Shown one piece after another: positions 36,866 through 40,883 of a stretch of 43,766 bases of DNA; the stretch's first letter is position 1, and each line of letters starts with the position of its first letter. The notes beneath the pieces were generated by a model. It made no database searches and was not told where the DNA came from. It saw only the letters and a list, made by a program, of their open reading frames with translations. A program made the position numbers and the translations under genes. Origin of the DNA: Desulfobacterales bacterium RIFOXYA12_FULL_46_15 (GTDB lineage: Bacteria > Desulfobacterota > Desulfobacteria > Desulfobacterales > Desulfobacteraceae); NCBI GenBank assembly GCA_001799395.1, contig MGTJ01000197.1, forward strand, positions 1 through 43,766, in the 5' to 3' direction.

Positions 36866-37075
36866 CTATGGTAAATCAGAGTAAATAGGAGCACTGCTCC
36901 ATTTACTGATTCTTTCCCAGCCGAATCTGTCTTCCCATCCATTTCTTCTATCTTTATATATCTTTCTTCTTTGCCCTGCTGGATATACCGGCCCGATATC
37001 AAGGATGCGTCTATCCACAGGCGATCTTCTATCTACAGGAGATCTCTTGGCAAATACTGTTTTTAGTTGAGGCAT
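36866..37075 (-). CDS. small basic protein with RxxxDRR repeats
   Basis: 69 residues, unrecognised by function. It contains tandem RSPVDRR-SPVDRR near the N-terminus, RRKIYKDRR in the middle and ends WERISKWSSAPIYSDLP. I recall short proteins of this look (repeated DRR, then a W-x-R-x-S-x-W-S-S end) in Desulfobacterota genomes, but know no role. A start at 37090 is possible, but AAGGAGA (37087-37081) is spaced correctly for the ATG at 37075. It has its own consensus promoter and a palindrome in its leader. Arginine richness suggests nucleic acid or anionic surface binding. Confidence 0.7.
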   Translation of the reverse strand: MPQLKTVFAKRSPVDRRSPVDRRILDIGPVYPAGQRRKIYKDRRNGWEDRFGWERISKWSSAPIYSDLP

Positions 37076-37146
37076 TTTCTTCTCCTTCATGAATGAATCT
37101 TATTATGGATCTTAAAATGAAGCTGAATCTGAGTTGAAATAAAATT

Positions 37147-37229: not shown

Positions 37230-37613
37230 TTATGGAAATACCAACTTTTCAAGAATAAGGCCCCAGAAACTATTTGATTCAGATGAAAAATACCATCCCA
37301 GATGAGTGGAGCACCTGGTACAGATTCCAATTTGCCATGAATAACCAATAAACCATGGGAATTCATTTGATAAAGTTGAAGCCGGGCAACAGTTTATAAC
37401 ATCTGAAAAACATCCAATTTCAAATACATAGCCATGGGGATTGGCAAATATGTGCCTAAAAGATTGATGAATGGCAATTTGTTTGGAGGGATCAGCTATA
37501 TGATTATGGCAAAAGGCACAAACAATAATCTCTTTATCTTTTGAAAGCTTTTTTGCCTCTTCGGCATATAAATTATCCGGCGATTGTTTGCAGATGATTT
37601 TCATGTCCATCAT
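37230..37613 (-). CDS. single-domain CULT (cereblon-type ligand-binding) protein
   Basis: 127 residues forming one CULT domain, the thalidomide-binding fold of human cereblon. Counting from ATG 37613: zinc ligands C32, C35, C98 and C101 (CAFC, CTRC); NPHGY from N58; ligand cage W87, W93, W107 and F109 in WFIGYSW and HLGWYF. Spacings equal human CRBN (W380, W386, W400, F402; N351) and bacterial MsCI4 of Magnetospirillum (W79, W85, W99). CRBN H378 is replaced by F85. The natural ligand in bacteria is unknown; uridine-like and cyclic imide compounds bind characterised members. It starts 13 bases after the EI24-like gene stop. Start is uncertain (37613, 37610 or 37604); the longer open frame overlaps the upstream gene. 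Confidence 0.9.
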   Translation of the reverse strand: MMDMKIICKQSPDNLYAEEAKKLSKDKEIIVCAFCHNHIADPSKQIAIHQSFRHIFANPHGYVFEIGCFSDVINCCPASTLSNEFPWFIGYSWQIGICTRCSTHLGWYFSSESNSFWGLILEKLVFP

Positions 37614-37626
37614 TTCTTTATATACA

Positions 37627-38343
37627 TCAAACTCCCTCTCTATCAATAAATGAAAGGGTTGCACCAACCGGAGCAAAAGAGAGAAATATAATGTTCAGAC
37701 CCGGGATAAGGAACAGAATTCCAAAACCGATATGAAACAACAGGTTGTTTTTTAAAAATCTAATCCGGGTTCTAAAAGGATACATACGTCTGGCAGGTAC
37801 AAGATCAGTATTGTCCCAGGCTAAAAATACCGCGGCTGCAATTGAAGATACAAATATGATAATGGGGCCCAAGGGGCTTAATAATCCGATAACCATAATA
37901 AAAAGAGTTATGACCACCGGGATTATCGCTCTTGGTATCTCTTGCTTTATAAGATGAATTAAAAAACTAAACCATGATGCCTGGCTCATTTGAATTTGTT
38001 TTCCAAGAATCATTGATTCAGTAATCCTGGACATATAGTCCATAATGAAAACGCAAAACAATAATTGTGAAATAAGATATGACAGCACCATGGAAATGAC
38101 AGCAAGGCCTATGGACAGGATATATGAGATAACATGCCAAAAATATATCAACCATCCTGAATCCGGTTTTATCCAGATTGCGGTTAAAATTTCATCATGC
38201 CGGTAAAATATGAGGCCTGATACCAGAAAGGTCAACAGTAAAACAAAAACAAATCTCAAAAGCCCTAACATTAAAAGTTTTGGGGTTTTAAGAGCCAGAA
38301 TGATCCCTTTAATGTTGTATTTTATACCCTCTAATAAATCCAT
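37627..38343 (-). CDS. EI24/CysZ-like integral membrane protein
   Basis: About 238 residues with around six hydrophobic segments arranged as in the EI24 domain family (CysZ sulfate transporter and relatives): MDLLEGIKYNIKGIILALKTPKLL at the N-terminus, paired long helices near 55-100, a third pair near 135-175, and NNLLFHIGFGILFLIPGLNIIFLSFAPVGATL at the C-terminus. CysZ carries sulfate in enterobacteria; whether this one does is not shown. The ATG at 38343 has AAGAGAA upstream and a normal start; the open frame extends to 38379 without a binding site. It is co-transcribed with the CULT gene. Confidence 0.85.
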   Translation of the reverse strand: MDLLEGIKYNIKGIILALKTPKLLMLGLLRFVFVLLLTFLVSGLIFYRHDEILTAIWIKPDSGWLIYFWHVISYILSIGLAVISMVLSYLISQLLFCVFIMDYMSRITESMILGKQIQMSQASWFSFLIHLIKQEIPRAIIPVVITLFIMVIGLLSPLGPIIIFVSSIAAAVFLAWDNTDLVPARRMYPFRTRIRFLKNNLLFHIGFGILFLIPGLNIIFLSFAPVGATLSFIDREGV

Positions 38344-38426
38344 ATGTTTTCTCTTATCTTTATTGTTAAATTTGATCATTTGTACTATACAAATACCAAT
38401 TTTTCAACTTTAAGGAGCAAGGATTG

Positions 38427-39272
38427 ATGAAAATATATTATGTCGATGGTAAATTTGTTTCATCTGATCAGGCAGTTATACCTGTTGACGATCTTGCTGT
38501 TTTGAGAGGATATGGGGTTTGTGACATCATGCGGACTTACAATGGCAAACCTTATTTTCTCAAAGACCATATTCGTCGTCTGGAAAATTCCGCAAAAGAA
38601 ATAGGATTATCATTGCCTTGGCAGACCAGGGAAATTACAGATATTGTGCTTGAAACATTAAATCGGAATCAGGTCACAGATGAAGCTAACATAAGAATTG
38701 TCATCACCGGGGGATCGAGCCCTGATTTTTTTTATCCCCAGGGAAACCCCAGAATGATCGTTCTGATCACGGATTTAAAAAAATTACCTGATACCTGGTA
38801 TGAAGCGGGGGTAAAAGTCATTACCTATCCCCTTGAAAGAAGTTTGCCGGATGCCAAGGTTATTTCCTATATACCGGCAGCAATTGCTTTGAAAAAGGCG
38901 AAGGAAACAGGAGCGATTGAAGCCATATACATAAATCGCAAAATGGAAGCCTTGGAAGGAACCACAAGCAATTTATTTGCGTTTTTCGAAAATACTCTTG
39001 TAACACCCAAAGATGGTGTACTGAAAGGCATTACAAGGCAGGCAATTTTAGCTATTGCAGAAAAAAGCTATAAAACAGAAGAAAAGCCCGTTTCGTTAGC
39101 TTGCCTTTTGAACGCAAATGAAGTCTTTATCAGCGGAACAAACAAATGTATCGTTCCGGTGATTCAAATTGATGACACAAAAATAGGCAATGGCAGACCT
39201 GGACCTGAGACAAAAAAATTGATTGCAGCACTTGAGAAACATGCTCTTGAATTTATCAGCTCACCATCATGA
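38427..39272 (+). CDS. class IV PLP aminotransferase (branched-chain or D-amino-acid type)
   Basis: 281 residues of fold type IV. The PLP lysine is K144 in DAKVISYIP; the glutamate lies in MEALEGTTSNLF, and LVTPKDGVLKGITR closes the active site, all family hallmarks. An N-terminal VDGKFVSSDQAVIPVDD is typical. Sequence alone does not settle branched-chain amino acid, D-alanine or 4-amino-4-deoxychorismate lyase activity. AAGGAG (38412-38417) supports the ATG at 38427 rather than the TTG at 38424. The last 6 bases overlap the convergent cyclase gene. Confidence 0.88.
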   Translation: MKIYYVDGKFVSSDQAVIPVDDLAVLRGYGVCDIMRTYNGKPYFLKDHIRRLENSAKEIGLSLPWQTREITDIVLETLNRNQVTDEANIRIVITGGSSPDFFYPQGNPRMIVLITDLKKLPDTWYEAGVKVITYPLERSLPDAKVISYIPAAIALKKAKETGAIEAIYINRKMEALEGTTSNLFAFFENTLVTPKDGVLKGITRQAILAIAEKSYKTEEKPVSLACLLNANEVFISGTNKCIVPVIQIDDTKIGNGRPGPETKKLIAALEKHALEFISSPS

Positions 39273-40883
39273 GATTGTTGAATCCGGAATGCATTTAATC
39301 ATAAAAGAAGTGTCTTGTGAAAATTCTTTATAGACAATGTTTTGTCTTTTGTAGATCACCTCTTCTGTAATATGAAAAAATCGTCTATAACAATCTATAA
39401 ATTTTGCTCTGTATAAATTATTGGATTTATTCAAAAAGCCGGATTCCGTAATGGCCTTCCAGATGATTCGAGTATCCTGGGTGATGCAGGCATTATTTAT
39501 CAGGGACATAATATCATCACTGATATGGATTTCGCCACTCCTTCCTGTGCTTTCCAATCTTGATGCATTATTGACGGCCTTACCGATGGCGGTAACGATT
39601 TTCCGCTTCTGGCTTCCCACGGGTCCGATAATTGCCGAACCTATTTCCATCCCTGCCCTGTAACTTAGATCGACCTTTGAGGCATCAATTAATTTTTTAA
39701 CTCGGCCTTCATTGTCCATCGGATGTTTCCCAGATTTCAAGAGATGAATTTCATTAAAAATTGATGCAATCGTAAAGATCATCAGCATTACACGCTCGTG
39801 AGCACTTATCGAAAAACAGGCATCTTGTTTGTCAAATGGGGAGGCATTGATGAGGAAAACAGAATCACCAATAAAATTATCCACTCGACAGGAAAATCGA
39901 TTTGCATTATCTGCAGCAACTTGGTGACATCGGTTTAAAATAAAAAAATAATCGCTGGGTTGGAAATTTTTCCGGATGGTGGCCGAACCCACCATATCAA
40001 TGAAGGCATAAACACCATCAGGTATATTAACTGCTTTCATATTGAGCTGTTCTTCATCAACAGCACCGACTGCTTTTAAATACTTTTTTTGTGCATTTAA
40101 TCGTATTTCCATATTTTTTAAATCAAGTGCAGTCTTTCTTAGACTTTTTTCTTTTCTCCAGATAATATGAGCTGCCTGTCGGCCTTTGGCAGACCCTATA
40201 TGCGCAATGGAAGTCATTTGGATGGCGGAAATCAGAATGTCCAATCGTTTTTTTAACTGATCCACATTGACGAACTTCTCTTCGTCAATGTGGATCAGGT
40301 CCTCACAGATCGTATTAAATACGATGGAACCATAATCCGGGATATAGGCGGAAACAAAATTTTTTGCATTGAATTGCCTGACGATGGCGGTATTGATTCT
40401 TAAGCCGGGCAAGCGTTCAATGTCCTTTCCGTCATATGAATGTATTGAATAAACAGATTCACCTTCAAAATCATTGAGCTTATCCTGAATATTGTGAATG
40501 ATTAGTATCTTCAGTCCTTTTTCATAGAATTCCTTATGAGTTCTCAAAACAAAAGATATAATACCGTCACTTTCTTTTTTTTCTCCAAATTGTGTGTCCC
40601 TGTAAATTCGGACAGGGGAAAGCCCATTTTTTTTTACGATAAAGGTTCCGAAATATTTAAGGATAAAGCCTGAAATTCCTTTTCCATCAAATTTATGCAT
40701 TACCCCCCTGTCCCATTGTGCAGGAGGAAGAAATTTTAAATAGGTATGATTGGTTCCAAGCAGTAATCCCACATGCCTGGCCTGAAGCAATTTGAGAGAA
40801 AAAGATAAAAGCAGGTTCAGGACATTTTTCTTTTTAAATACAATTCTTTCAAATCTTTCAATATCAGGCAATTCTGGTTTCAT
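39267..40883 (-). CDS. class III adenylate/guanylate cyclase domain protein, soluble
   Basis: 538 residues. Residues 1-240 form an uncharacterised, possibly GAF-like globular region, 241-275 a likely coiled-coil linker, and 288-465 a class III cyclase domain. Metal ligands D296 (FIDMVGS) and D340 (FIGDSV) and the transition-state pair N438/R442 (VNNASRLE) are kept. The purine-binding lysine position holds N336 (VDNFIGD), and the usual aspartate before the TxIG motif is replaced (KIVTAIG). Both are unusual for adenylate cyclases. No membrane segment is visible. It overlaps cfa by 20 bases, so it is expressed with it. Catalytic activity and nucleotide specificity are open. Confidence 0.85.
   Translation of the reverse strand: MKPELPDIERFERIVFKKKNVLNLLLSFSLKLLQARHVGLLLGTNHTYLKFLPPAQWDRGVMHKFDGKGISGFILKYFGTFIVKKNGLSPVRIYRDTQFGEKKESDGIISFVLRTHKEFYEKGLKILIIHNIQDKLNDFEGESVYSIHSYDGKDIERLPGLRINTAIVRQFNAKNFVSAYIPDYGSIVFNTICEDLIHIDEEKFVNVDQLKKRLDILISAIQMTSIAHIGSAKGRQAAHIIWRKEKSLRKTALDLKNMEIRLNAQKKYLKAVGAVDEEQLNMKAVNIPDGVYAFIDMVGSATIRKNFQPSDYFFILNRCHQVAADNANRFSCRVDNFIGDSVFLINASPFDKQDACFSISAHERVMLMIFTIASIFNEIHLLKSGKHPMDNEGRVKKLIDASKVDLSYRAGMEIGSAIIGPVGSQKRKIVTAIGKAVNNASRLESTGRSGEIHISDDIMSLINNACITQDTRIIWKAITESGFLNKSNNLYRAKFIDCYRRFFHITEEVIYKRQNIVYKEFSQDTSFMIKCIPDSTIS
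40257..40298. repeat. perfect 18-bp inverted repeat with 6-base loop inside the cyclase gene
   Basis: Bases 40257-40274 and 40281-40298 are exact reverse complements around CTTCTC. On the coding (minus) strand they cover codons 196-209, between the N-terminal domain and the coiled coil. As RNA the hairpin would be very stable. Such a long exact palindrome is not expected by chance. Confidence 0.85.

What the first reader, a model, noticed from the sequence alone, without database searches (positions are those of the whole stretch)
37230..37613. A bacterial cereblon-type (CULT) protein with the complete thalidomide-binding cage
The sequence shows CxxC...CxxC zinc ligands (C32, C35, C98, C101) and the cage W87, W93, W107, F109, with spacings 6-14-2. 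These equal the human CRBN cage (W380, W386, W400, F402), and even NPHGY (CRBN N351) is in register at 29 residues before the first tryptophan. The fourth cage residue is F as in human, where MsCI4 of Magnetospirillum has Y. CRBN H378 is F85 here. Bacterial CULT proteins are known, but their native ligand and job are not. A free-standing copy in an anaerobe is a good handle on the original function of the pocket.
Basis: partly seen in the sequence, partly recalled or inferred. Interest (0 to 1): 0.85.

Follow-up and report, generated by a model that had tools for sequence, protein, structure and literature searches.

The report
A bacterial cousin of cereblon's drug-binding domain
This short gene in a bacterium of the Desulfobacula group encodes a stand-alone copy of the pocket through which human cereblon binds thalidomide; such bacterial copies were already known, and what they do in bacteria is still open.

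Summary
The minus-strand ORF 37613-37230 encodes a 127-residue single-domain CULT protein. It matches MsCI4 at E 8e-17 and cereblon at 5e-11; its model superposes on MsCI4 (Z 17.9, 1.3 A, 100 residues) and cereblon (Z 16.2). Zinc ligands and cage are in register. It is not new in kind: bacterial CULT proteins, mainly delta-proteobacterial, were described in 2015. Here 126 of 194 genomes searched in the order carry one. All 165 distinct sequences counted keep the three tryptophans; F, not Y, is the majority at the fourth position (120 of 165), so that trait is not special. In the window's family the gene usually sits directly behind an EI24/CysZ-like gene (26 of 32 mapped loci), but not outside it. 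New lead, outside the window: in another class a distinct CULT subtype lies beside a Lon-type protease gene in 5 of 6 genomes, in two gene orders, though in 0 of 12 genomes of a further class. I take the protein to be a reader of cyclic-imide ends on damaged proteins; that step is inferred.

The parts
37230..37613 (-). CULT-domain protein, 127 aa, single domain; ATG 37613 (or 37604), stop ending at 37230
37509..37520 (-). first zinc CxxC (C32, C35)
   Evidence: sequence; present in 165 of 165 distinct relatives counted
37428..37442 (-). NPHGY motif (N58-Y62), counterpart of the CRBN N351 region
   Evidence: N and G in 165 of 165, P in 162, H in 83, Y in 21
37287..37355 (-). aromatic cage W87, W93, W107, F109 and second zinc CxxC (C98, C101)
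   Evidence: three W in 165 of 165; fourth residue F 120, Y 45
37627..38379 (-). EI24/CysZ-like membrane protein (PF07264, 60.3 bits), 13 nt upstream of the CULT ATG, same strand: possible operon partner in this bacterial family
   Evidence: immediately upstream on the same strand in 26 of 32 mapped loci; not so outside the family
36866..37090 (-). 74-aa conserved small ORF downstream of CULT (SPVDRR repeats, C-terminal WSSxPIYSDLP)
   Evidence: found in 19 of the same 32 loci, on the CULT strand each time; no Pfam match above cut-off

Best explanation
It is a stand-alone CULT (cereblon thalidomide-binding) domain: a zinc-pinned beta-tent whose three tryptophans plus a phenylalanine form a cage that takes up the edge of a cyclic imide ring. 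Shown by computation: family membership, predicted fold, residue register, strong conservation of the cage, and a tree position that fits vertical inheritance in Desulfobacula. Inferred: that the natural ligand is the C-terminal cyclic imide (aspartimide or glutarimide) left on damaged or PIMT-modified proteins, as for human cereblon, and that the protein works as a reader in protein quality control, handing such proteins to, or marking them for, a protease or hydrolase. Not shown: any partner or ligand for this copy.
For: Membership and fold. Three tryptophans, four zinc cysteines and the N351 counterpart are in 165 of 165 distinct Desulfobacterota sequences counted (they were found with a profile that contains these residues, so weak members may be missed). 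Retention: a match in 65 of 86 genomes of the family, 126 of 194 of the order, 39 of 395 of the phylum, the window's genome included each time; none in 72,556 plasmid or 50,697 phage records, so a housekeeping role is likelier than a mobile one. Human cereblon binds C-terminal cyclic imides, made by cleavage or by PCMT1 (passages). In a different class a CULT subtype is clustered with a Lon-type protease and a BFN-domain gene: CULT-Lon-BFN in 3 genomes, Lon-BFN-CULT in 2. All 6 genomes of that class with the subtype have this Lon paralogue (full-length match, 65% identity or more) against 5 of the 79 others (Fisher p 1e-6, not corrected for kinship). G705, of the same genus as G217, has the same MBL-Lon-BFN locus with only the CULT gene missing. 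A metallo-beta-lactamase-fold hydrolase gene lies within four genes of CULT in 9 of 166 loci, in eight families of two classes.
Against: The Lon linkage belongs to another CULT clade (tree), is absent around the window gene, and occurs in 5 of 166 CULT loci in all. It is missing in 12 of 12 loci of a further class whose genomes nearly all have that Lon (two of the 12 contigs end at the CULT gene). Two more genomes of the same CULT clade, G397 and G471, have only a distant Lon, about 40% identical, and no Lon near CULT. The Lon test was chosen after the first two loci had been seen. The neighbouring Lon showed no LON N-terminal domain, which cereblon has (E limit 1e-5). No binding was tested; uridine binds MsCI4 with an affinity like thalidomide's (passages). 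Whether the window genome has a PIMT gene was not checked. One CULT-like sequence, L238, has lost the NPxG motif.
Confidence: 0.4

Rival explanations
1. A small-molecule sensor or buffer: the cage binds uridine, dihydrouracil, hydantoin or another free cyclic imide or ureide, and the protein regulates nucleobase metabolism or transport.
For: Uridine and deoxyuridine bind MsCI4 in the thalidomide mode (passages; PDB 4v31 listed). One locus has a dihydrouridine synthase gene 12 bp upstream (L101).
Against: That neighbour was seen in one locus; of the about 40 neighbour proteins that I had annotated no other suggested nucleobase metabolism, but most neighbours were not annotated. [quoted passage not shown]
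Confidence: 0.2
2. A soluble partner of the EI24/CysZ-like membrane protein encoded just upstream, for example a ligand-gated regulator of that transporter-like protein.
For: Immediately upstream on the same strand in 26 of 32 mapped loci, under 25 nt away in 22 of the 26 by my ORF starts; 13 nt in the window. Of nine family genomes without CULT, five have no EI24 match either, four of them Desulfobacula (several are fragmented, so the locus may just be missing).
Against: Four family genomes without CULT keep EI24 (G030, G061, G062, G063); in G061 and G062 it stands at the same place with CULT gone. Of 39 CULT genomes searched outside or at the edge of this arrangement, 16 have EI24, none beside CULT; among the loci mapped outside the family one (L187) has an EI24-like gene some 2.7 kb off on the other strand. 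The whole block is syntenic in the family, so shared ancestry explains the linkage.
Confidence: 0.15
3. An enzyme of the beta-tent fold (for example an imide hydrolase or a reductase related to MsrB) rather than a binder.
For: The fold family includes MsrB and GFA (passage). In these bacteria C68 and C75 are nearly constant (154 and 146 of 165) and H104 in 152 of 165. A few MsCI4 entry titles mention hydrolysis products of the ligand; I did not look into their origin.
Against: C75 is absent in MsCI4 by the alignment. The many MsCI4 and cereblon entries are binding complexes (titles); no catalytic residue of CULT is known to me (recalled).
Confidence: 0.1

Closest known systems
MsCI4 (MGR_0879, cereblon isoform 4 of Magnetospirillum gryphiswaldense)
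   Same: single-domain bacterial CULT protein, same fold (Z 17.9, 1.3 A over 100 residues), three cage tryptophans, zinc CxxC pairs, F at the H378 position
   Different: 33% identity; window protein has F where MsCI4 has Y101 and H where MsCI4 has A52, both as in human; extra C75; P86 before the first cage tryptophan
CULT domain of cereblon (CRBN)
   Same: cage residues, NPHGY motif, E377 counterpart, zinc ligands; Z 16.2 to 9odr
   Different: no LON domain and no DDB1-binding part; F for H378, P for S379 (S379 recalled)
Delta-proteobacterial CULT group of Lupas et al. 2015 (PMC4287342, passages)
   Same: the group this protein belongs to: free-standing CULT domain, mainly delta-proteobacteria
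   Different: nothing found beyond ordinary sequence divergence
Yippee / Mis18 (PF03226)
   Same: same fold, weak profile match
   Different: 19.8 bits, below the 26.6 cut-off; the yippee cage is predicted from other residues (passage)

Membership tests
CULT domain (bacterial single-domain group) | significant sequence similarity to known CULT proteins | tested here: met
   E 8.2e-17 to MsCI4, 4.8e-11 to cereblon
CULT domain (bacterial single-domain group) | three cage tryptophans in register, with F/Y as fourth | tested here: met
   W87, W93, W107, F109
CULT domain (bacterial single-domain group) | two CxxC motifs that hold zinc | tested here: met
   C32/C35 and C98/C101 present; zinc itself not measured
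CULT domain (bacterial single-domain group) | beta-tent fold | tested here: met
   AlphaFold2 pLDDT 83.1; Z 17.9 to 6r0q_B over 100 residues; pocket geometry not measured
CULT domain (bacterial single-domain group) | protein consists of the CULT domain alone | tested here: met
   127 aa; residues 28-127 superpose on the domain, 1-26 mostly low confidence
CULT domain (bacterial single-domain group) | binds thalidomide-type imides or uridine | not testable with these tools
   needs purified protein
Yippee/Mis18 Pfam family PF03226 | score above the curated cut-off | tested here: not met
   19.8 bits against 26.6
Cereblon proper (CRBN E3 substrate receptor) | LON domain and DDB1-binding region next to CULT | tested here: not met
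   127-aa protein; no Pfam domain above cut-off
Lon-associated CULT cluster (seen in L119, L123, L239, L240, L241) | Lon-type protease gene within a few genes on the same strand | tested here: not met
   window neighbours are EI24, small ORF, epimerase; the window genome's one match to that Lon at E 1e-60 or better lies on another contig

The most novel reading that the evidence does not exclude
Bacterial CULT proteins show the original form of cereblon's job: adaptors that catch proteins ending in a cyclic imide and deliver them to a Lon-family protease. A subtype is encoded in a CULT/Lon/BFN cluster whose gene order has been rearranged while the linkage was kept, and the window's protein would be an unlinked relative with the same role.
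Probability: 0.2. Interest if true: 0.9.

Novelty: new member of a known kind. Interest (0 to 1): 0.42.

Why it matters
Cereblon is a leading handle for targeted protein degradation, yet what its pocket was first for is unknown. The window gene shows that a Desulfobacula relative keeps the pocket with a more human-like rim (F402 and H353 counterparts) than the crystallographic model MsCI4, so it might serve as a naturally part-humanised soaking system. The Lon-linked subtype found on the way gives a concrete, testable candidate pathway for bacterial CULT proteins. Paper searches (open-access library only) turned up no account of it; the three papers holding both 'CULT domain' and 'Lon protease' mention Lon only in cereblon's naming history or in reference lists (passages).

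Tried and rejected
Mobile element or phage origin: no match in plasmid or phage records, none in viral contigs with alignment A1, one weak partial with A2; rejected for this copy. EI24 as a general partner: rejected beyond the family. N-terminal fusions: long open frames (up to 406 aa) looked by eye like run-on reading frames; no profile search was made on the extensions. Recurrent downstream neighbours, 181 aa (8 loci) and 142 aa (4 loci): no Pfam match, no function drawn. Alpha/beta-hydrolase upstream (3 loci of one family), Lactamase_B_3 hydrolases upstream (L103, L119) and a DsbD-like gene downstream (8 loci of one family) as partners: not pursued. A PIMT (pcm) gene in the window genome: not tested. 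Lon linkage as a property of all CULT proteins: rejected (5 of 166 loci; 0 of 12 in the class of G475). The count used 165 distinct of 216 sequences; I had left out L002 (chance hit, E 0.4) and L018 (partial match) beforehand, and some 20 sequences fetched later are not in it; among those L238 has lost the NPxG motif though it keeps the tryptophans; partial Lon matches of 55-58% identity (G658, G671, G718) were not counted as the Lon paralogue, and 10 of 85 genomes had no Lon match at all. The 32 loci are 31 of the window's family (two genomes gave two each) and L013, a record titled Desulfarculaceae that I added.

Full report
What is there. The minus-strand ORF from ATG 37613 to the stop ending at 37230 gives a 127-residue protein. 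phmmer against PDB sequences gives MsCI4 of Magnetospirillum gryphiswaldense at E 8.2e-17 and cereblon chains from 4.8e-11 on. PMC8900816 (passages read) equates the three tryptophans with human Trp380, Trp386 and Trp400. Pfam's Yippee-Mis18 model matches only below its cut-off (19.8 against 26.6 bits).

Fold. AlphaFold2 on the 16-row alignment A1 gave pLDDT 83.1: 79 residues at 90 or more, low values at residues 1-5 and 11-26. Foldseek and VIA-align put MsCI4 first (6r0q_B, Z 17.9, 1.3 A over 100 residues) and cereblon close behind (9odr_D, Z 16.2, 1.7 A over 100 residues). No coordinates were available to measure the pocket, so its geometry is inferred from the superposition.

How ordinary it is. 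Lupas et al. 2015 (PMC4287342, passages) already described free-standing bacterial CULT proteins, mainly from delta-proteobacteria. Here 65 of 86 genomes of the window's family, 126 of 194 of its order and 39 of 395 drawn from its phylum have a match. In a tree of 186 rows and few columns the window protein sits with Desulfobacula sequences in starred groups, which fits vertical inheritance. Among 165 distinct sequences all keep the three tryptophans, the four zinc cysteines, the N351 counterpart and the G of NPxG; the fourth cage residue is F in 120 and Y in 45. F is thus the usual state, not a human-like oddity. A later sequence, L238, has lost the NPxG motif. The window protein is one of 12 of the 165 that join the F402, H353 and Y355 counterparts (Y355 recalled). 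It differs from human at H378 (F, as in 139 of 165) and has a rare P86 (2 of 165).

Surroundings. The gene directly upstream on the same strand, 13 nt away, encodes an EI24/CysZ-like membrane protein (PF07264). I mapped 32 loci, 31 of the family plus L013: it is the immediate upstream neighbour in 26, two or three genes away in three, and missing in three, one of them at a contig end. Of 48 genomes searched for EI24 outside this arrangement, 39 have CULT and 9 are family members without it. Of the 39, 16 have EI24, never beside CULT; of the 9, four keep EI24 and five lack both. G061 and G062 keep EI24 in place with both CULT and the small ORF gone. One locus outside the family, L187, has an EI24-like gene some 2.7 kb away on the other strand. 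I read this as family synteny, possibly an operon, and not as proof of joint function. A conserved small ORF of about 70 aa with SPVDRR repeats lies downstream in 19 of the 32 loci and was not found in the other 13.

Other neighbourhoods. 145 loci were clustered first, 166 CULT loci in all. Outside the family the flanks vary: hydrolases, acyl-CoA dehydrogenase, HemD fusion, EF-G, histidine kinases and others; most neighbours were not annotated. The widest recurrent neighbour is a metallo-beta-lactamase-fold gene of about 221 aa (PF00753), within four genes of CULT in 9 loci, eight families and two classes, directly downstream on the same strand in L202 and L283; a 181-aa protein of unknown family accompanies it in several and lies within two genes of CULT in 8 loci. 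This could be a second functional lead or an old shared neighbourhood; it was seen late and not pursued.

The Lon lead. In the class of G217 (85 genomes) one search finds 8 matches; six (E 2e-57 or better) belong to a distinct CULT subtype, with a GG/SG-NG stretch before the first CxxC in 8 and a H378 counterpart in 7 of the 10 rows of alignment A2. In five of these six genomes a Lon-type protease gene (AAA_32, LonB lid, LonC helical and Lon_C domains) and a BFN-domain gene lie close by on the same strand, as CULT-Lon-BFN in three and Lon-BFN-CULT in two; in G708 Lon-BFN and CULT are apart. All six carry this Lon paralogue (65-100% identical to that of L119) against 5 of the 79 others (Fisher p 1.1e-6; kinship not corrected, and the test was chosen after the first two loci). 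In G705, same genus as G217, the locus reads MBL-Lon-BFN with only CULT missing. Against it: in the class of G475, 12 of 55 genomes have the subtype and 54 of 55 a Lon match, yet Lon is near CULT in none of the 12 loci (two contigs end at CULT). G397 and G471, of the same CULT clade in the tree, have only a Lon of about 40% identity and none near CULT. So this is a real local cluster and a lead to function, not a rule, and it does not touch the window's own gene.

Mechanism. Human cereblon recognises C-terminal cyclic imides formed by cleavage at asparagine or by PCMT1 (passages of PMC11974815 and PMC13001092; the primary papers were seen only in reference lists). A pocket kept without a tryptophan change in the 165 sequences counted, in proteins that are little more than that pocket, argues for the same kind of chemical ligand. 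I therefore favour a cyclic-imide reader in protein quality control (0.4), over a uridine-type sensor (0.2), an EI24 partner (0.15) and an enzyme (0.1). Membership in the CULT family I put at about 0.98.

Literature limits. Searches covered an open-access library only; in their listings and the passages that I opened I saw no account of a function for bacterial CULT proteins or of a CULT-Lon gene cluster.

Noticed in passing
window 36866-37090 (-): 74-aa small ORF, strongly conserved in Desulfobacula and some sister genera (SPVDRRSPVDRR...WSSxPIYSDLP), found in 19 of the 32 mapped family loci, and absent in two genomes that also lack CULT.
   Followed up: partly
L119, L123, L239, L240, L241: CULT gene clustered with a Lon-type protease and a BFN-domain gene in two gene orders.
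   Followed up: yes
L159, L161, L163, L165, L172, L183, L185, L202, L283: A metallo-beta-lactamase-fold hydrolase gene (about 221 aa) within four genes of CULT in eight families of two classes.
   Followed up: partly
L159, L161, L163, L165, L171, L172, L185, L283: An uncharacterised protein of about 181 aa (starts M-EIKSTL) within two genes of CULT in eight loci, same strand in seven.
   Followed up: partly
L084 (second CULT copy of genome G052): A divergent second CULT paralogue that groups with sequences of another class (L115, L238) in the tree, so perhaps acquired by transfer.
   Followed up: no
L238: CULT-like protein that has lost the NPxG motif but keeps all three tryptophans: a possible change of ligand.
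   Followed up: no
L101:7382-8416: Dihydrouridine synthase gene 12 bp upstream of CULT in one genome, of interest because uridine binds MsCI4.
   Followed up: no
window 39267-40883 (-): 538-aa protein with a C-terminal adenylate/guanylate cyclase domain and no recognised N-terminal domain, conserved in synteny in the family.
   Followed up: no
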